A DNA stretch of 64,000 bases from NCBI RefSeq assembly GCF_030813055.1, contig NZ_JAUSTW010000009.1:62001-126000 (forward strand). Direction: 5' to 3'. A program made the translations under genes and the position numbers. The notes below the pieces were generated by a model. That model made no database searches and had not been told where the DNA came from. It saw only the letters and a list, made by a program, of their open reading frames with translations. This stretch comes from Neobacillus ginsengisoli. GTDB taxonomy: Bacteria; Bacillota; Bacilli; Bacillales_B; DSM-18226. Below are positions 2,206-59,351 of this stretch, piece after piece; the first letter of the stretch is position 1; every line of letters begins with the position of its first letter.

Positions 2206-2303
2206 TAATACCTACCCCTTTAATTTATTGGACATTTTACTCCTACCCACATTTAGATAAGGAATGGTAATAGGAGATGAAGCACTAGTCATTACCAATG
2301 TGA

Positions 2304-2636
2304 TTAAAAAACCAATTGCACCAAAATCATGTAGACAATCGTTCCCCCTGCTATAGAGAGCAGCATCTTTTTCTTCTAAAAGTGAAGCAGTGCAACTATC
2401 GCTACCGCAATAAATTCGGGGATACCGTGACTTCCAGATAGTAAACTCACATCCTTAAAACAATAAACGACCAAAAGTCCAATTACCGCCGATGGCAGCA
2501 CTTTACCGAGATACTGTACATAATTCGGTGTGGGTTTACCTGATGGGAAAACAATGAATGGAAGAAACCTTGTAAGCATTGTTCCTAAAACCACCATTGC
2601 AATCGTAATAATCTGTTGCGTTAAATTCATAGTCAT
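2304..2636 (-). pseudogene. azlD: azlD-like branched-chain amino acid transport subunit with internal TAG
   Basis: The reading frame encodes 86 residues of a four-helix AzlD protein and stops at a TAG (2376-2378) just after the motif IVALLHF. If the TAG is read through, the same frame continues as KKKMLLSIAGGTIVYMILVQ and ends at a TAA at 2304-2306, giving about 110 residues, the normal AzlD length and C-terminal sequence. The codon at the stop is usually Trp (TGG) in this position, so a single G to A change explains it. Its start overlaps the azlC stop by the typical ATGA. As the partner azlC is also broken, the exporter is not functional. Confidence 0.75.
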
Positions 2637-3028
2637 GTGGTGCTAACCTCAACTTTCTCCAATGGCTTTCTAAGTAGGGTAAGTACTCCCAAAATTACAA
2701 ACATAGCAGGGAGAATGAAATTGTTTCCACCGAAAATCATTAGGCTGGCAGTTGAAAGCCCAAGCCCTACGAGAGCACTATGGTGCTTTTTCTCTTTCAT
2801 CCACTGTTCTATGAAGATTACAACAAAGAGAGCTGTCATAACAAAATCGAGTCCTTCAGTGTTGAACTTAACAAGCGATCCAAAAATACCACCAATCGTT
2901 GCTCCTATGACCCAATAGGAATGATTGAGCAGTGTAACAAAGAGCATAAACCAGCCCTTGTCTACATTCTTCGGTACATCAACGGTACAATTAATAGAAA
3001 AAGACTCATCGCAAAGCCCATAAATCAT
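2633..3028 (-). pseudogene. azlC: azlC-like branched-chain amino acid exporter subunit, 5'-truncated
   Basis: This encodes the C-terminal 131 residues of an AzlC protein, beginning at the conserved region seen here as YGLCDESFSI; the family is usually 230-240 residues, so roughly the first 100 are missing. An in-frame stop lies three codons upstream. The homology ends at the point where the opposite-strand MocR remnant begins (about 3028-3050). It overlaps azlD by 4 bases as in intact azlCD operons. Truncation by a deletion that also removed the 5' end of the neighbour is the simplest reading. Confidence 0.72.
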
Positions 3029-3554
3029 ATCCGATTATCAGCAGCCAATGTTCCATTTACTTCCAGAACAAAGCGTTTATATTTGTGGCACCTCTAAGTC
3101 AATATGTTCTGGAATAAGAGTTGCCTATATGGTCTATGGGGATGCATTACGTGAGAAAATTTTGCAGGCAATTTTTAACATCAATGTAAAAACCTCTTCT
3201 TTAGATGCAGAGGTTATCACAGAGCTTATCTTATCTGGGAAGGCACATGAAATTGTTTCTCAAAAGAAACAGCTTGCACAGTCTGCAAATGATATTTATT
3301 CGGAATATTTTCCTTTAAGAAAGAATGTTGGAAATCCTCTTAGTTTTTATCGCTGGCTTCCAATTCAAGAACATAACGATGCGTTACAGTTAGAAACAGA
3401 TTTGAAAATGCTCGGTATTCGAGTTTTTCATTCTGATCGTTTTCTAAGCGGGCAGACCACCCCTGATAAGTATTTGCGTATTGCACTTTCTTCTACAAAC
3501 TCATTAGAGGAGTTAAAAATAGGAATAAAAATATTAAAACAGTATCTCAACTAA
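3021..3554 (+). pseudogene. C-terminal remnant of a MocR/GntR-type regulator (aminotransferase-like domain)
   Basis: The frame encodes about 170 residues matching the C-terminal third of PLP-binding MocR-type regulators: YICGTSKSICSGIRVAYM carries the PLP lysine (in TSK), followed by the small domain ending LRIALSS. A TAA at 3021-3023 closes the frame upstream, and the N-terminal GntR winged helix and most of the fold-type I domain (about 290 residues) are missing. Regulators of this class often sit divergently from the transporter they control, which fits the azlC remnant next door. It can no longer bind DNA, so I treat it as a pseudogene. Confidence 0.7.
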
Positions 3555-3597
3555 TTGATAAAAAATACAACATTATTTAGCAAAAGCCCCAAAAAAA

Positions 3598-3629
3598 ATA
3601 AAAAGCTTGAAAGATCAAGCTTTTTATCT
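3598..3629 (+). terminator. terminator after the MocR remnant
   Basis: The stem AAAAAGCTTGA / TCAAGCTTTTT with an AAGA loop is followed by TATCTT. It still looks intact although the gene in front of it is broken. Confidence 0.75.
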
Positions 3630-3899
3630 TGGGAGAGCGTCATTTTTTGAAACTCGTATTATGTCGATAGGAAGGTATTTTTTAAGAATCTATTCTATTA
3701 AGTCTTCAAATTTTTAAAAGCGAGTTGGCTAATCAATACCACTGAACATTTAATAGTAGCTATTTGCTGTACACGATCAACCTTGCTTATTAATAAAAAA
3801 TTGAATATCGGTTTGATGAACCAAGGTCTCATCGATTAATTTTGTCTAGTTAAAAGATGATTAATCATGTTTTGTTACATACTTCATTATTATTAATAT
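3630..3899. other. AT-rich stretch without an open gene
   Basis: No intact reading frame or RNA was seen. The last 100 bases probably hold the decayed helix-turn-helix part of the TetR remnant that becomes readable at 3897. Confidence 0.4.
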
Positions 3900-4280
3900 G
3901 ATTTACTAGATAAGCTCATTGCAGAACATATTAACGAAATGCGGTTAATATGCGAATCCACATCCGAAGCAGAATATAAAGATGCGAATCTGCCTTGGTT
4001 CGAATACCTTGAAAGTCATTATTTATTCTTTTCGACGATGTTAGCCAGTAAAGGAGCCCCTTCTTTTCGTAGTCAGTTTCTTGAGTTTCTCATCGAAGAG
4101 TTCAAGGATGAAGTGAATATAACAAAAGGAAAAAATAAAGGATTAAATGAAGATGTTATTCTTCAATTTATTGTGACGACTTACGTAGGGATAGTGGAAT
4201 GGTGGATCACGAATGAAATGCCTTATCCACCTCATGTCATGGCAGACCAAGTGGGGATTTTGTTAGAGAGGAATTTATAG
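3897..4280 (+). pseudogene. TetR-family regulator remnant lacking its DNA-binding domain
   Basis: The readable frame starts after a TAA (3894-3896) with YDLLDKLIAEHI, the point in TetR proteins directly after the helix-turn-helix (usual context HYKDKYDLL). It continues through an intact C-terminal domain of about 110 residues ending ILLERNL. Upstream, the sequence resembles a mutated version of the expected recognition-helix coding region but in a different frame and with stops. The ATG at 3939 gives only 113 residues. No ribosome binding site precedes it. I infer a pseudogene whose N-terminal 50-60 codons have decayed; an alternative is an HTH-less protein using the ATG at 3939. Confidence 0.6.
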
Positions 4281-36778: not shown

Positions 36779-37390
36779 TTAAATTAACCAAGTTTCCTTA
36801 TACCATTTAGCAGCAGCTTCCACTTCTTCAAAAGTTAATTGATGACCTCTATTCTCCCAATGAAGATGTACTTTAGCATTGGCATTTGCCAATAATGACT
36901 CGAGCTCACCTGATTCCAACGGTGAACAAATAGGATCATTTGTACCGGCACCAATGAACACAGAGATTCCAGTCAAATCAGGTAATTCAATTCCTCTTAA
37001 AGGAACCATCGGATGATGTAGAATTGCTCCTTTTAATGCATTTTGAAAATGGAAAAGCATGCTTGCGGCGATATTTGCACCATTGGAATACCCAACCGCA
37101 ATTATATTTTTCCGATCAAAACCATATTTCGCAGATGCTTCGTCAAGAAATTCATATAGTTCTTTCGTCCGAAACACCAAATCGTCCTCATCAAAAATGC
37201 CTTCCGCTAATCTTCGGAAAAAACGCGGCATTCCGTTTTCCAATACATTTCCTCTGACACTCAGAAATGAAGCATCTTCATCCATTTTTCCTGCTAAAGG
37301 AATAAGATCCAATTCATTTCCACCAGTCCCATGCAGCAATAAAAAAGTTGGCTTCGTTCCGTCTTTTCCTTTTTGAAAAAAATGTTTCAT
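36779..37390 (-). CDS. mhqD: MhqD-type phospholipase/carboxylesterase hydrolase
   Basis: 203 residues. LLLHGTGGNELDLIPLA is the oxyanion region, GYSNGANIA the nucleophile elbow, GAGTNDPICSP the acid and NRGHQLT the His. B. subtilis MhqD, a putative hydrolase of the quinone-detoxification regulon, has this exact architecture. Third gene of the mhqO-flavin reductase-mhqD operon, 39 bases after the flavin reductase. Confidence 0.85.
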   Translation of the reverse strand: MKHFFQKGKDGTKPTFLLLHGTGGNELDLIPLAGKMDEDASFLSVRGNVLENGMPRFFRRLAEGIFDEDDLVFRTKELYEFLDEASAKYGFDRKNIIAVGYSNGANIAASMLFHFQNALKGAILHHPMVPLRGIELPDLTGISVFIGAGTNDPICSPLESGELESLLANANAKVHLHWENRGHQLTFEEVEAAAKWYKETWLI

Positions 37391-37429: not shown

Positions 37430-38038
37430 TTATTTTGGTCTTTCAAGCGTAAATACCTCACCAATTTTAGCATAATCATTCCCAGCTAATCGACTTACTG
37501 CACCTAATCCTACTTGATTAATCCGCCCATTTTCATAAATAGCATCATCAATATGGAATTGAATGGCTCTTCCAATAATAAAATCGCAGACTGGAGAATC
37601 ATTACCACCCAACTCTAAAGATTGTTCTAATATGCACTCCATCCGCACCTTTGCTTCTTTTATACCTGGAACTGAAATCTTGGTACTCTTTATAGGAGTG
37701 AGATGAGCAATTTCGATTTCACTTTGATTAGAAGCAAGATTTGCTGCTGTCTTATTGACTTTTTCAACATTGAGATCATCAACAATATGAACAACAAATT
37801 CCTTTGACTTAAGGATGTTACGGGCTGTATCCTTCCGTCTCCCATCCAACCTTTGTATAGCTAAGGAAATCATTGGTGGATTTGCTGTTACAATATTAAA
37901 GTAGCTAAATGGTGCCCCGTTTAATGTTCCATCCTCGGTAATAGACGTTACAAACGCTATAGGTCGGGGGATAATACTTCCAATTAAAAGCTTATAATTT
38001 TCCCTTTCAGTATTAAGGGACGGGTCAATCGTACGCAT
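37430..38038 (-). CDS. flavin reductase-like FMN-binding protein (YwrF-like)
   Basis: 202 residues of the flavin_reduct family: ENYKLLIGSIIPRPIAFVTS at the N-terminus, SYFNIVTANPPMISLAI and RKDTARNILKSKEFVVHIV. Such proteins bind FMN and reduce flavin or act on small molecules. In B. subtilis this class (YwrF) is not in the mhq operon, so its insertion between mhqO and mhqD is a local trait; a role in quinone reduction is inferred. Twenty bases from mhqO. Confidence 0.82.
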   Translation of the reverse strand: MRTIDPSLNTERENYKLLIGSIIPRPIAFVTSITEDGTLNGAPFSYFNIVTANPPMISLAIQRLDGRRKDTARNILKSKEFVVHIVDDLNVEKVNKTAANLASNQSEIEIAHLTPIKSTKISVPGIKEAKVRMECILEQSLELGGNDSPVCDFIIGRAIQFHIDDAIYENGRINQVGLGAVSRLAGNDYAKIGEVFTLERPK

Positions 38039-38058: not shown

Positions 38059-39000
38059 TCAATCTAACTCTCTTAATGTAAATGGAGCCAAAACTGCTTC
38101 AATTTTTCCTCTTTGTGGTTCGTACTGTGCAGGCAACATTAATTTTTCTCCCATAGTTTCTCGTGACTCATCATGTGCAAATCCTGGCGGATCAGTGGCA
38201 ATTTCAAATAAGATTTCTCCGTGTTCTCTAAAGTAAATGGCATTAAAGTAATTTCTGTCTTGAACGGGAGTAACTCCATATCCATAGCTCTGAACGTATT
38301 TTTTCCAATCTATTTGATCCGCATCATCACTGGCACGCCAAGCAATATGATGTACAGTCCCAACGCCCATTTGCCCGCGGCCAATCGGAGTTAGTTTTAG
38401 GTCAATTACATTTCCAATATCACCTAAAGACCGAAAACGAACGAAATCTCCTTCTGTTCCGATTTTTTCAAGACCGAGGACATTCTCTAATAATTCTGCC
38501 GTTTTATCAGGATGGGCAGATAACAGTGTTGCACCAGCAAAACCTTTAATTGCTACATCTGAGGAAACACCGCCAAAATTCCACGTATTTACTTCGCCTT
38601 CTTCTCGCTCTACAATTTCCAAATGCAATCCATGAGGATCGTCAAATTCTAAGTACTGCTCACCAAATCGTTCAATTATTGTATAAGGGACCTTAAACTT
38701 TTCCAATCTTTTTTCCCAAAAGCCAAAAGAGCCTTTTGGAACAACGTAGGAAGTAACTCCCACTTGACCGTCACCTATGGTTCCTTGGTATGCACCAGGC
38801 CACGGGAAGAATGTAATAATTGTTCCAGGTTTCCCCCCTTCATTACCGAAATATAAGTGATATGTTCCCGGGTCATCAAAATTAACAGTTTGTTTGACAA
38901 GTCGCAATCCCAAAATACCCGCATAAAAATCAGCATTTTCTTGTGGGTGTCCCACAATTGCTGTGATATGGTGGATTCCCATTGTTTTTTTCATATCCAT
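38059..39000 (-). CDS. mhqO: ring-cleaving (glyoxalase-fold) dioxygenase MhqO
   Basis: 313 residues with two vicinal-oxygen-chelate modules: GIHHITAIVGHPQENADFYA at the N-terminus and MGVGTVHHIAWRASDD in the second half, with a metal Glu in REHGEILFEIATDPPGF. MhqO proteins are thiol-dependent dioxygenases of the (methyl)hydroquinone-responsive regulon. First gene of its operon; an MhqR-type operator lies 100 bases before the start. The ribosome binding site GGAGGAGAG is strong. Confidence 0.9.
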   Translation of the reverse strand: MDMKKTMGIHHITAIVGHPQENADFYAGILGLRLVKQTVNFDDPGTYHLYFGNEGGKPGTIITFFPWPGAYQGTIGDGQVGVTSYVVPKGSFGFWEKRLEKFKVPYTIIERFGEQYLEFDDPHGLHLEIVEREEGEVNTWNFGGVSSDVAIKGFAGATLLSAHPDKTAELLENVLGLEKIGTEGDFVRFRSLGDIGNVIDLKLTPIGRGQMGVGTVHHIAWRASDDADQIDWKKYVQSYGYGVTPVQDRNYFNAIYFREHGEILFEIATDPPGFAHDESRETMGEKLMLPAQYEPQRGKIEAVLAPFTLRELD

Positions 39001-39099: not shown

Positions 39100-39117
39100 A
39101 ATCTCTAATTCGAGATA
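39100..39117. promoter_or_regulatory. MhqR-type operator upstream of mhqO
   Basis: AATCTCTAATTCGAGATA matches the B. subtilis MhqR inverted repeat TATCTCGAATTCGAGATA in 16 of 18 positions. It lies between the mhqO start and the doxX stop. Confidence 0.75.
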
Positions 39118-39119
39118 TA

Positions 39120-39533
39120 TTAGAATAAAAATGCATCAACTGAATAATGCCCAGGACCTGCGATAGCTACAGCAATTGCTACTACAAATAATGTTAAATT
39201 ATACTCATAACCATTTTGTGTAGACCATAGGCCATTTGGACCATGCACTTTTACAATTGCCATTACCATTGTTAATGCAATCATTATACCAGCAAGAGAA
39301 GTAAGCAATCCTGCTGCAAATAAAATACCTCCAAAAAATTCTGCTAATCCAGCCATAAGAGCCATTGCAAAACCAGGTTTAATTCCGATCGATTCCATCC
39401 AGCCGCCTGTACCTTTTATACCATAGCCGCCAAACCAACCAAATAGTTTTTGTGAACCATGACCAATAAATAATAATCCAATCACTAAACGTATTAATAA
39501 TAACCCAATATTCAACATTTTCTCTTCCTCCAA
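39120..39533 (-). CDS. mhqP: DoxX-family membrane protein (MhqP-like)
   Basis: 137 residues, four membrane spans. GLLFIGHGSQKLFGWFGGYG and FFGGILFAAGLLTSLAGIMI are the DoxX signatures. DoxX proteins are small quinone-linked membrane proteins; MhqP of B. subtilis is in the MhqR regulon. It lies 14 bases downstream of the mhqR reading frame, so the two form an operon behind the operator at 40018. Length is normal. Confidence 0.87.
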   Translation of the reverse strand: MEEEKMLNIGLLLIRLVIGLLFIGHGSQKLFGWFGGYGIKGTGGWMESIGIKPGFAMALMAGLAEFFGGILFAAGLLTSLAGIMIALTMVMAIVKVHGPNGLWSTQNGYEYNLTLFVVAIAVAIAGPGHYSVDAFLF

Positions 39534-39547
39534 AATAGGTTTTGTTT

Positions 39548-39982
39548 TTAAATGCCCGAGCTAGCTTTTTGACCAACTCTTTTAAGGACACTGATGATTT
39601 GTTGCTTCTCTTCTTGATCAATTCCATCAAATAATTTTTCAATTACTTTTCGATGCTGTGGAAAAATCTTATCCATTATTTTTTTTCCTGATTCTGTAAT
39701 TGTGATATGAATGACGCGTCGATCTTCAGGGCAAAAATTACGTTTTAGTAGACCCTTCTGTTCTAATTTATCAATCACATAAGTCATTGAGCCACTGGCT
39801 AATAAAATCCGGTTACAAATTTGTTGAACAGTTTGCATTCCTTTATGATATAAAACCTCTAACACAGAAAACTCTGTTGGACTGAGGCTGTAATTGTTTA
39901 TATCATGTTTAATTCTATCTTAAACAGATTTCGCAGCTTTCATGAAAACCACAAAAGCTTTGAAAGTAAGTTCCTTTTCCAT
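39548..39982 (-). pseudogene. mhqR: mhqR: MarR-family repressor with a stop at codon 21
   Basis: From ATG at 39982 (GGAGGTGGTGAG upstream) the frame reads 20 codons, MEKELTFKAFVVFMKAAKSV, then TAA at 39920-39922, then continues in the same frame as DRIKHDINNYSLSPTEFSVLE for the rest of a MarR protein, 144 codons in all. The winged helix (TVQQICNRILLASGSMTYVI and LEQKGLLKR) and C-terminal dimer helix are otherwise intact. Translation restarting at a GTG (39865) would give 105 residues without the first dimer helix. I infer loss of function by a single base change. Confidence 0.82.
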
Positions 39983-40017
39983 CTCACCACCTCCGATAAT
40001 TTTATCTTGAATTAAAA

Positions 40018-40035
40018 TATCTTGAATATGAGATA
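40018..40035. promoter_or_regulatory. MhqR-type operator upstream of mhqR-mhqP
   Basis: TATCTTGAATATGAGATA matches the MhqR consensus in 15 of 18 positions, 36 bases before the mhqR start. The partly similar ATCTTGAATT lies just before it at 40004. Confidence 0.68.
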
Positions 40036-40227
40036 ATAATAAAACATGTATTCAATTACGTCAACCATTTTATTTAATTTTATTTTCTCAAAAAGCGGTT
40101 TTTTTTTTCCCTCAATTTGTTTAGGCCTAGGGTTATTATTAACTCTTAGAGTGAAAAACTCTGTCCAACATGACCAAGCTTCCCAAAAAATCAAAGCAGA
40201 ATTGAATGAAAGGATAACTCAATAAGA

Positions 40228-56732: not shown

Positions 56733-58259
56733 CTAATTTTCTGCTAACTTTGGTGTAACCTTATTACCTGCTTGTTTTTCCATTGGATCTTCAGCTTGTT
56801 TAGCACGTTTAATGAAGAAAGCAAGGATTAAAGCAACACAAGAAATTCCAACCGCCACTATGAATGAATCATTAATCCCTTCTAACATTGCCTTCATGGC
56901 AACTTGCTGCTTCATTTGAGCAATTACCGCAGGTGTTGGTTGACCTGTTAAATGCTTCATGGCAGATGCTGCTAAATCAGTCGCATGTGTTTTCGTGCGG
57001 TTCGACATAATCGTTACCAACAACGCTGAGCCAATTGCACCTGAAACCTGCTGTAGCGTATTATTCATTGCTGTTCCATGCGGATAATAGCGGGCTGGCA
57101 ATTGATTTAATCCATTTGTCATAATAGGCATCATCACCATTGACATCCCAAACATCCGTGCAGAATATAAAATAATTAATTGTGTGTATGAGGTATCAAG
57201 TGTTAATTTACTGAAAAAATAAGTTGTAATCGTTGTAATTGTCAATCCAATAATCGCTAGTACACGGCCGCCAAACTTATCAAATAATTTACCCGTAATC
57301 GGGGACATGATTCCCATCAATAGAGAACCCGGCAACATCAATAATCCTGAATGGAGCGTTGAAATCCCGCGAATCGTTTGAACATAAATCGGTAATAACA
57401 GCATACCTGAAAATAAAGCCATAGATATAACAATTGAAATAGCTGATGATAAAGCAAACATCGGGTATTTATAGACCTTAAAATTAAGCATTGGCTTTTC
57501 AAGTTTAGATTGTCGAAGTATGAATAAAACCAATGAAATAGCCCCAACAACTATCGTAATGTATACTTGAGGGCTATCCCAGCCCTTGCTGCCTGCAGAA
57601 CTAAATCCATATAACATACCGCCAAAGGCTACGCTTGATAATAAGAGTGAAAATAAATCAAGACGAAGATCAACTTTATCCTTCTTATCTTTAAGCAAGA
57701 AGACCCCAATTAATAAAACAATAATAGCGATCGGTGTCACTAAATGGAATAACATTCTCCAATCGTAATGTTCAAGAAGCCAGCCGGATAATGTCGGTCC
57801 AATTGCAGGTGCAAAAATAAACACCAATCCGAAAAGTCCCATCACGCCTCCGCGTTTTTCAACAGGGAAGCCTGTTAACATTACATTCATTAAGAGCGGC
57901 ATCATGATTGCTGAACCTGATGCTTGGATCATCCTAGCCACTAATAATATAGAAAAGTGTGGTGCAAAACCTGCGAGAATCGTACCGACGGTAAATATAC
58001 TAATCGCAGTTAAAAATAAACGTCGGACAGAATATTTTTGAATCAAAAATGCTGTGGATGGAATCATGACTCCATTTACCAGCATATAACCAGTTGCCAG
58101 CCATTGAACAGTCGATGCTGAAATATTCAAGTCCTTCATAATCGTTGGCAGGGCAACATTCAAAAGTGTTTCATTTAACATGGAAATAAAAGCCCCAATA
58201 AGCAGGATAGCGATAATCCCGTACGGCGGGCGATTAGTCTTTGAAATGGAATGGTCCAT
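56733..58259 (-). CDS. DHA2-family (EmrB/QacA) multidrug efflux MFS transporter
   Basis: 508 residues from ATG 58259 (TAGGAGGAG upstream). Fourteen predicted membrane spans. Motifs: SMLNETLLNVALPTI (span 1), WLATGYMLVNGVMIP, motif A as IQKYSVRRLFL, motif C-like FAPAIGPTLSGWLLE. These antiporters expel lipophilic drugs with protons. The divergent TetR gene at 58449 and an intervening palindrome make a normal drug-sensing pair. Substrate unknown. Confidence 0.9.
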   Translation of the reverse strand: MDHSISKTNRPPYGIIAILLIGAFISMLNETLLNVALPTIMKDLNISASTVQWLATGYMLVNGVMIPSTAFLIQKYSVRRLFLTAISIFTVGTILAGFAPHFSILLVARMIQASGSAIMMPLLMNVMLTGFPVEKRGGVMGLFGLVFIFAPAIGPTLSGWLLEHYDWRMLFHLVTPIAIIVLLIGVFLLKDKKDKVDLRLDLFSLLLSSVAFGGMLYGFSSAGSKGWDSPQVYITIVVGAISLVLFILRQSKLEKPMLNFKVYKYPMFALSSAISIVISMALFSGMLLLPIYVQTIRGISTLHSGLLMLPGSLLMGIMSPITGKLFDKFGGRVLAIIGLTITTITTYFFSKLTLDTSYTQLIILYSARMFGMSMVMMPIMTNGLNQLPARYYPHGTAMNNTLQQVSGAIGSALLVTIMSNRTKTHATDLAASAMKHLTGQPTPAVIAQMKQQVAMKAMLEGINDSFIVAVGISCVALILAFFIKRAKQAEDPMEKQAGNKVTPKLAEN

Positions 58260-58353
58260 TGTATCTCCTCCTATAAACTCATAGTTCATTTTTTTATACT
58301 GATATTTCATACAGACAATATCATATACCGGCAGTTCACTTTTTGCAATCATA

Positions 58354-58369
58354 AAATAACCTGTTATTT
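58354..58369. promoter_or_regulatory. palindromic candidate operator AAATAAC-CT-GTTATTT
   Basis: A perfect 7+2+7 palindrome in the 189-base region between the divergent MFS and TetR genes, about 80-95 bases from either start. Confidence 0.5.
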
Positions 58370-58448
58370 ACTGGATTTGTATTAATAAAATAAATAGGGT
58401 ACTATATTTTTATACACGCAGTCTAATTTAAAAGTAAAGGTGAATGTG

Positions 58449-59351
58449 ATGAACGACCGGAAACAGCATGTTATAGGTATGGCCCATCAATTATTTATCG
58501 AAAAAGGTTTTCAAGCTACGTCCATCCAGGATATTTTGGAATATAGTGGAATTTCGAAAGGAACTTTTTATAATTATTTTTCTTCAAAAAACGAATTATT
58601 AAAAGCCATATTTAAAACAATTTTCAAGAAAATGGATAAGGAGCGGGATGAATTACTAATTGGAAAGGATAAATCAGATATCGAGATTTTTATCAAACAA
58701 ATGGAATTGCAAATGAAGTCGAACAAAAAAAATAACTTATTTACCCTTTTCGAAGAAGTATTGTTTTCGAATGATGAGGATCTGAAAGAATTCATTAAAC
58801 GCGGTCATTTGATGATGCTTCACTGGTTATATAACCGGTTTATCGACATTTTCGGGGAAAGTAAAAAACCCTATTTACTGGATTGTGCCATTATGTTTAT
58901 GGGAATTTTACATCAGAACCTTCATTTCAAATTAATGGCGAATGGTTCAGGTGCAAAAATTCACAAGGTAGTCCGTTATAGTGTTGATCGGATTGTAAAA
59001 ATCGTAGACGAGGTAGCGGAAAGCGGGGATCAATTGATAGAACAGGAGTTTTTAGAAACATGGCTGCCGGATTGCGAAAAAAACAACAAAGGGTTTCAAA
59101 AGAAATTATTTCACACCGTTCTATCGTTGAAAAAGACGCTAACCAATGACGAGGAACAAATAAAATATATTGAGCTGCTTGACTTTATTTCTGAAGAGCT
59201 GCAGAACTCAAGAACACCAAGGAAATTTCTAATTAACAGCGCTCTTTTTTCTTTAAAAGCCAATCAAGCAGACCTTTGGAAAAAAGAACTTCAATTATTG
59301 GAAGAGATAATTTCTTCCTATTTTAATCAATTAGAGGAAACAAGCGCCTAA
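58449..59351 (+). CDS. TetR/AcrR-family transcriptional regulator
   Basis: 300 residues from ATG 58449 (AAAGG 8 bases before; GTG 58440 is the alternative). N-terminal HTH (residues 5-50): FIEKGFQATSIQDILEYSGI, SKGTFYNYFSSKNELL. The C-terminal ligand domain is longer than average (about 230 residues), with a helical Lys/Glu-rich end. It is divergent from the DHA2 pump and probably represses it, releasing in the presence of a drug or other lipophilic ligand. Confidence 0.88.
   Translation: MNDRKQHVIGMAHQLFIEKGFQATSIQDILEYSGISKGTFYNYFSSKNELLKAIFKTIFKKMDKERDELLIGKDKSDIEIFIKQMELQMKSNKKNNLFTLFEEVLFSNDEDLKEFIKRGHLMMLHWLYNRFIDIFGESKKPYLLDCAIMFMGILHQNLHFKLMANGSGAKIHKVVRYSVDRIVKIVDEVAESGDQLIEQEFLETWLPDCEKNNKGFQKKLFHTVLSLKKTLTNDEEQIKYIELLDFISEELQNSRTPRKFLINSALFSLKANQADLWKKELQLLEEIISSYFNQLEETSA

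What the first reader, a model, noticed from the sequence alone, without database searches (positions are those of the whole stretch)
39548..40035. mhqR has a nonsense codon at position 21 while both MhqR-type operators are kept
The MarR-type repressor frame is otherwise intact over 144 codons and has a good ribosome binding site, but codon 21 is TAA (39920-39922). The operators before mhqR (40018-40035) and before mhqO (39100-39117) still match the B. subtilis MhqR consensus. The expected effect is constitutive expression of mhqO, flavin reductase, mhqD and mhqP, giving built-in quinone or electrophile resistance. It resembles laboratory-selected mhqR loss mutants.
Basis: partly seen in the sequence, partly recalled or inferred. 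Interest (0 to 1): 0.7.

Follow-up and report, generated by a model that had tools for sequence, protein, structure and literature searches.

The report
Broken accessory quinone repressor, probably backed up
A Bacillus relative carries an early stop codon in the repressor gene of its quinone-detoxification operon; the break looks real and recent, but related genomes nearly always keep a second, separate repressor of the same type, so permanent switching-on of the operon is possible rather than expected.

Summary
In the mhqR frame (39982-39548, minus strand) codon 21 is TAA (39922-39920), the other 143 codons are open, and both MhqR-type operators (40018-40035, 39100-39117) are present. The mhqR operator recurs unchanged in 20 of 80 relatives, the mhqO operator in 3 of 44. 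The stop lies mid helix 1 and the GTG restart mid helix 2, so a working repressor is unlikely. Conservation of the remnant says the stop is recent.

Constitutive expression does not follow. The gene belongs to an accessory MhqR class (A), mostly operon-linked. In the family searched, 187 of 193 genomes hold exactly one copy of a second MhqR (class B), including all 81 genomes with class A. Genomes with B but no A carry the same operator, often before mhqO-type genes, so B could still repress this operon. Whether the window's own genome has B could not be tested.

Class A breaks elsewhere: 3 of 95 copies, two near codon 20, against 0 of 187 for B. This is an ordinary natural loss-of-function allele within a possibly recurrent pattern.

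The parts
39548..39982 (-). class A mhqR frame (MarR type), 144 codons, interrupted at codon 21
   Evidence: Pfam PF01047 on the C-terminal piece
39920..39922 (-). TAA nonsense codon (codon 21), mid helix 1
   Evidence: helix 1 = residues 7-29 in the model of intact relative P0002
39548..39865 (-). GTG-start remnant ORF (105 aa), also present as a protein record; starts inside helix 2
   Evidence: (P0001)
40018..40035 (-). MhqR-type operator before mhqR, directly after the -10 box
40036..40064 (-). putative mhqR promoter: TTGACG (40059-40064), 17 nt, TATTAT (40036-40041); read by eye
   Evidence: a similar layout is visible in L001
39120..39533 (-). DoxX-family gene (mhqP-like), directly after mhqR
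   Evidence: PF07681
39100..39117 (-). MhqR-type operator before mhqO
39117..39144 (-). putative mhqO promoter: TTCAGT (39139-39144), 16 nt, TAATAT (39117-39122), at the 3' end of doxX; read by eye
38059..39000 (-). mhqO-like ring-cleaving dioxygenase/glyoxalase, intact
37430..38038 (-). flavin reductase-like gene, intact
   Evidence: PF01613
36779..37390 (-). mhqD-like carboxylesterase, intact
   Evidence: NF047577, 197 bits, below its cut-off of 325

Best explanation
A recent natural nonsense mutation has inactivated an accessory, operon-borne MhqR (class A) of a Bacillaceae bacterium near Neobacillus. Translation ends after 20 residues, in the middle of the helix that helps build the dimer and one wall of the quinone pocket, so no working repressor is made. 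A separate core MhqR (class B) is very probably still in the genome and recognises the same 9-9 bp operators. The doxX and mhqO-flavin reductase-mhqD units are then under class B control alone: still quinone-inducible, with at most partly raised basal expression. Shown: the stop, the operators and operon, recency, the class A/B distribution in relatives, the same operator pattern in genomes with B but no A. Inferred: class B in this genome, its binding to these two operators, expression levels.
For: Codon 21 and frame. Helix 1 = residues 7-29, helix 2 = 35-47 in the model of intact relative P0002 (mean pLDDT 81.9, 11 rows); best sequence and fold match is S. aureus MhqR 9qdr, where helices 1, 5 and 6 make the dimer and helices 2-4 with the wing the DNA-binding motif (PMC12893000, section 5 read). 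Recency: dN 0.18 against saturated dS 1.83 to L001; 5 residue changes unique to the window against 10 unique to L001; 49 of 50 invariant columns kept besides codon 21 (single relatives left out in turn break 0 to 3), and 0.05 neutral substitutions per site would leave at most 1 broken in only 1.4% of simulations. Class B in 187 of 193 family genomes, one copy each, and in all 81 with class A. 20 of 20 chosen genomes with B but no A hold the operator pattern, 43 sites against 2 for the reversed pattern; of the 20 loci fetched (one per genome), 11 have the site beside an MhqO-type gene (7: four at 71-79%, three at 35-36% identity), DoxX (1) or the class B gene itself (3). Recognition-helix segment 17 of 19 identical between window and nine class B rows. 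Class A copies break elsewhere while class B stays intact: 3 of 95 against 0 of 187, Fisher p = 0.037.
Against: The window's own genome is not held, so class B is inferred from relatives, and the window's genus is not among the named ones (oligoendopeptidase F 85% to the nearest named, FJAT-29790). No binding or expression data. In ten of eleven class B loci fetched from genomes that mostly also have class A, the gene's own site is weaker (4-5 mismatches) and in the eleventh (L174) there is none (8 mismatches), so affinities may differ. In S. aureus loss of MhqR derepresses strongly. 9 of the 20 operator loci lie beside none of the searched genes. The 3/95 against 0/187 contrast is small and includes one late truncation; early breaks alone give p = 0.11, and 16 further class A copies outside the family are not flagged as broken. 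Operon linkage of class A is usual, not universal: 10 of 80 loci have none of the four neighbour genes in the fetched stretch, among them L005 of FJAT-29790.
Confidence: 0.58

Rival explanations
1. Full derepression: the local MhqR was the only effective repressor of these operators, so doxX and mhqO-flavin reductase-mhqD are constitutively on and the strain has built-in quinone or electrophile tolerance.
For: Operators and operon intact; mhqR loss derepresses mhqRED 206- to 891-fold in S. aureus (PMC6798810, passages); mhqR::tn was selected in B. subtilis L-forms (PMC4510147, passages); all four broken class A genes (window, L202, L211, L213) keep an upstream operator with at most 3 mismatches.
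Against: 81 of 81 family genomes with class A also have class B, and genomes with B alone use the same operator pattern, in part before the same genes.
Confidence: 0.27
2. The stop is a sequencing or assembly error and the gene is intact.
For: The remnant shows no decay; the stop is seen in one assembly only; reads are not available.
Against: The frame aligns with relatives without an indel, so it is a substitution and not a homopolymer slip; the contig is long (256,679 bases); independent early breaks of the same gene class exist in two other assemblies, though these were not checked against reads either. From recall, consensus substitution errors are rare relative to natural pseudogenes.
Confidence: 0.1
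3. The truncated product still works, through restart at GTG 39865 or stop readthrough.
For: The 105-codon remnant is strongly conserved and keeps the recognition helix and wing; a protein record of it exists (P0001).
Against: The GTG is in mid helix 2, and helix 1 of the dimer interface would be gone; only a weak GAG-like ribosome site precedes it; in none of the 80 relatives does the match begin there; conservation is explained equally by recency.
Confidence: 0.05

Closest known systems
MhqR (YkvE) of Bacillus subtilis and its mhqNOP/mhqED/azoR regulon
   Same: MarR-type quinone repressor, 9-9 bp operator, MhqO/MhqD/MhqP-type target genes (recalled, and mentioned in passages of PMC6798810)
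   Different: The loss mutant seen in print is laboratory made (transposon, PMC4510147); here a natural allele of one of two MhqR classes. The B. subtilis protein itself was not compared here, so its class is not established.
MhqR of Staphylococcus aureus (mhqRED, PDB 9QDR/9SMZ)
   Same: Nearest solved structure by sequence and by fold to intact relatives; operator at the transcription start; pocket residues F, F, E, H at matching positions
   Different: Controls only the mhqRED operon (PMC6798810); class B is about as close to it (115 bits) as the window's class (121 bits); the window gene is interrupted
Broken class A mhqR genes in Bacillus sp. OV166 (L202) and genome G564 (L213)
   Same: Early break (TGA at codon 23; frame break at about codon 19), operator kept, DoxX downstream, class B intact in the same genome
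   Different: Independent mutations; OV166 also keeps another intact class A copy (L215), and its broken copy has only distant MhqO-type genes downstream (38-41% identity)

Membership tests
MarR-type MhqR repressor (as encoded before the break) | MarR winged helix-turn-helix domain | tested here: met
   PF01047, 47 bits against cut-off 24.6, on the C-terminal piece
MarR-type MhqR repressor (as encoded before the break) | Closest to characterised MhqR among solved structures | tested here: met
   Intact relatives: 9qdr best by sequence (E 3.9e-34) and by fold (E 5.4e-11)
MarR-type MhqR repressor (as encoded before the break) | Quinone-pocket residues (SaMhqR F11, F39, E43, H111) | tested here: met
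   By the alignment, with the chain numbering shifted by three (my inference), these fall on window F10, F38, E42, H110, all present in the frame; F10 lies before the stop, the other three after it
MarR-type MhqR repressor (as encoded before the break) | 9-9 bp operator at its own promoter and before mhqO | tested here: met
Functional MhqR repressor | Uninterrupted protein with dimer helix 1 | tested here: not met
   TAA at codon 21, mid helix 1
Functional MhqR repressor | Quinone-responsive operator binding | not testable with these tools
   needs a binding assay
Constitutive mhqR-null state (as in laboratory mutants) | No other MhqR acting on the operators | tested here: inconclusive
   Own genome not held; 187 of 193 family genomes carry class B
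MhqD equivalog (NF047577) for 36779-37390 | Score above the curated cut-off | tested here: not met
   197.2 bits against 325; called mhqD-like only

The most novel reading that the evidence does not exclude
Loss of the operon-borne quinone repressor (class A MhqR) is a recurrent natural step in Bacillaceae: independent breaks, three of the four counted here at about codons 19-23, with operators kept, hand control of acquired mhq operons over to the near-universal class B MhqR. That would be a repeatable evolutionary takeover of a regulon, possibly passing through a selected derepressed phase.
Probability: 0.22. Interest if true: 0.55.

Novelty: new member of a known kind. Interest (0 to 1): 0.36.

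Why it matters
It shows that a broken local repressor beside intact operators does not by itself mean constitutive resistance: a paralogue elsewhere may own the same operators. The set of natural class A breaks (window, OV166, G564, PS3-12) beside an unbroken class B makes redundancy against selected derepression directly testable in harmless soil bacilli.

Tried and rejected
Tried: whole genome of the window (not held). Plasmid search: 17 records match, one (Priestia aryabhattai, 85% of the query covered, 74% identity) carries the operon genes, so such operons can sit on plasmids; that the window is chromosomal is inferred from its housekeeping genes. Class B mhqR inside the window: none; the only match is the broken gene itself. 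Relaxed selection on the remnant: not seen. The view that mhqR is never broken in nature was held after and dropped when searches found broken class A copies.

Rejected: GTG start as the normal start. The stops flagged in three listed rows (L124, L125, L127), and in six of the eight flagged rows, are natural C-terminal ends. One search lists only part of its matches (353 of 397 genomes had one), so it is not used for a count of intact genes. The flavin-reductase dN/dS line was mis-framed and is not used. In the tree four Brevibacillus/Fictibacillus rows that I had labelled A fall on the side of B; class B itself is one clade (100/99), and the window lies with the remaining A rows on the other side of a 100/99 split, without a closer supported place.

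Literature searches listed no paper whose title or abstract start tells of natural mhqR nonsense alleles or of two MhqR classes; apart from the listings, passages of four papers and one section were read, so this is no proof of absence.

Rows dropped: the 95 class A copies are those at E <= 1e-58 with model A4; operon linkage was looked at only in the fetched ones. L175 (G419:C95, frame broken near the C-terminus) falls below this limit and is not counted. Badly decayed copies of either class would be missed. One search lists 19 class A copies in 18 of 397 genomes of the order, 3 of them shared with the family set. The 20 genomes were picked by hand from those with one match; all 20 are with one class B copy and none is among the 81.

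Full report
Observation. The mhqR frame runs from ATG 39982-39980 to the stop at 39550-39548 on the minus strand: 144 codons, of which codon 21 (39922-39920) is TAA and codon 40 (39865) is GTG. A strong ribosome site precedes the ATG. Downstream lie a DoxX gene, an mhqO-like dioxygenase, a flavin reductase and an mhqD-like esterase, all open. By eye, the mhqR promoter is TTGACG-17-TATTAT with the operator directly after the -10 box, in keeping with the S. aureus operator at -6 to +12 (PMC6798810, passages read).

Operators in relatives. In 80 relatives fetched with the C-terminal remnant, 57 have a site with at most 3 mismatches upstream of mhqR, against 0 of 1600 base-shuffled controls. The window's mhqR operator is identical in 20 of the 80; its mhqO operator is identical in 3 of the 44 loci with a close mhqO downstream (L028, L060, L074), and 15 of those 44 have a site with at most 3 mismatches. 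So the window's operators are kept.

What the stop does. A model of the intact relative P0002 (mean pLDDT 81.9) has helix 1 at residues 7-29 and helix 2 at 35-47; the best PDB match by fold and sequence is S. aureus MhqR 9qdr. There, helices 1, 5 and 6 form the dimer interface and helices 2-4 with the wing bind DNA (PMC12893000, section 5 read), and the quinone pocket uses F11 of the partner's helix 1 with F39, E43 and H111 (passages). The stop is in mid helix 1 and a GTG restart would begin in mid helix 2. A working repressor from this gene is very unlikely.

Age. Against L001 the frame has dN 0.18 with dS saturated at 1.83; with L002 or L003 as outgroup, 5 residue changes are unique to the window and 10 to L001. 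Of 50 columns invariant in 12 relatives, codon 21 left out, the window keeps 49; each relative left out in turn breaks 0 to 3; 0.05 neutral substitutions per site would leave 0-1 broken in only 1.4% of simulations. The stop is recent on the scale of these divergences, or an error; reads are needed to tell.

Two classes of MhqR. The window's oligoendopeptidase F is 91% identical to one unnamed protein and 80-85% to the others of the 119 listed hits besides itself, mostly Neobacillus-type Bacillaceae where named; Bacillus sp. FJAT-29790 (85%) is the nearest strain with a name. In the family of G417 (193 genomes), many genomes gave two or three MhqR matches. Fetching some showed a class like the window's (A) and a second class (B); the 11 class B loci fetched have none of the operon genes within the 4-4.5 kb taken. 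B is one clade with support 100/99, and the window lies on the other side. With class-specific models, B is present as exactly one copy in 187 of 193 genomes, none with an internal stop (150 rows listed, the other 37). Class A is in 81 of 193 genomes, 95 copies. The six genomes without B have no A. FJAT-29790 (G003) has two A and one B. Of the 80 loci, 70 have at least one of DoxX, MhqO, flavin reductase or MhqD in the fetched stretch.

Same operators. Twenty genomes with B but no A all contain the operator pattern with at most 2 mismatches: 43 sites against 2 for the reversed pattern. Of the twenty loci fetched, eleven have the site beside an MhqO-type gene (seven: four at 71-79% and three at 35-36% identity to the window's), DoxX (one) or the class B gene (three); nine have none of the searched genes near. 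Over 19 residues around the recognition helix the window and the nine class B rows agree at 17. Against this, class B loci of genomes that mostly also have class A show weaker own sites (4-5 mismatches in ten, none in L174). Class B probably binds the same consensus, and the broken class A gene need not leave the operon unrepressed. Binding at these two operators was not tested.

Natural precedents. Among the 95 class A copies three are broken: L202 in Bacillus sp. OV166 (TGA at codon 23; operator and DoxX kept; only distant MhqO-type genes follow), L213 in G564 (frame break at about codon 19; operator, DoxX and mhqO kept, flavin reductase as far as fetched) and L211 in Neobacillus sp. PS3-12 (TAA at codon 133 of 140; operator, DoxX and mhqO kept). 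All three genomes have an intact class B. These breaks were not checked against reads. 3 of 95 against 0 of 187 gives Fisher p = 0.037; counting early breaks only, p = 0.11. Sixteen further class A copies in the order are not flagged. This suggests, but does not prove, that class A is under weaker selection than class B.

Mechanism. Most likely the operon passed from control by its local class A repressor, with or without class B, to class B alone. Expected phenotype: inducible expression, perhaps with a raised basal level. Full constitutive expression stays possible (0.27). A further point from recall, not tested: untranslated mhqR mRNA may lower doxX expression by polarity, whereas mhqO has its own putative promoter.

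Verdict. Real observation, ordinary in kind, with one useful correction (the probable second repressor) and one mildly novel pattern (repeated early breaks in the operon-borne class).

Noticed in passing
   Followed up: yes
L213, about 1850-2290 (G564): Class A mhqR with a frame break at about codon 19; operator, DoxX and mhqO kept, flavin reductase as far as fetched.
   Followed up: yes
L211 (G482) and L175 (G419:C95): Class A copies broken near the C-terminus (stop at codon 133 of 140; frame break).
   Followed up: partly
window 2212-4280: A decayed-looking cluster: AzlC with only its C-terminal part and a TetR C-terminal domain without its DNA-binding part, an AzlD-like frame that ends early and a MocR-like C-terminal fragment (both names recalled).
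   Followed up: partly
L001:722-1010: The reverse situation: mhqR intact but the mhqO match in fragments. mhqO or mhqD fragments also show in L011, L041, L059 and L070, so accessory mhq operons seem prone to decay.
   Followed up: no
hit H1 (NZ_CP072474.1): A Priestia aryabhattai plasmid carries ring-cleaving dioxygenase, flavin reductase, hydrolase and DoxX genes at 74% DNA identity: such operons can move.
   Followed up: no
L062 (record titled Arthrobacter beigongshangensis), P0151 (Rhodococcus qingshengii): Bacillaceae-like mhq genes under actinobacterial names; possibly mislabelled or contaminated assemblies.
   Followed up: no
window 56733-59351: Divergent pair of a multidrug-type MFS transporter and a TetR-type regulator (by reading the ORFs).
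   Followed up: no
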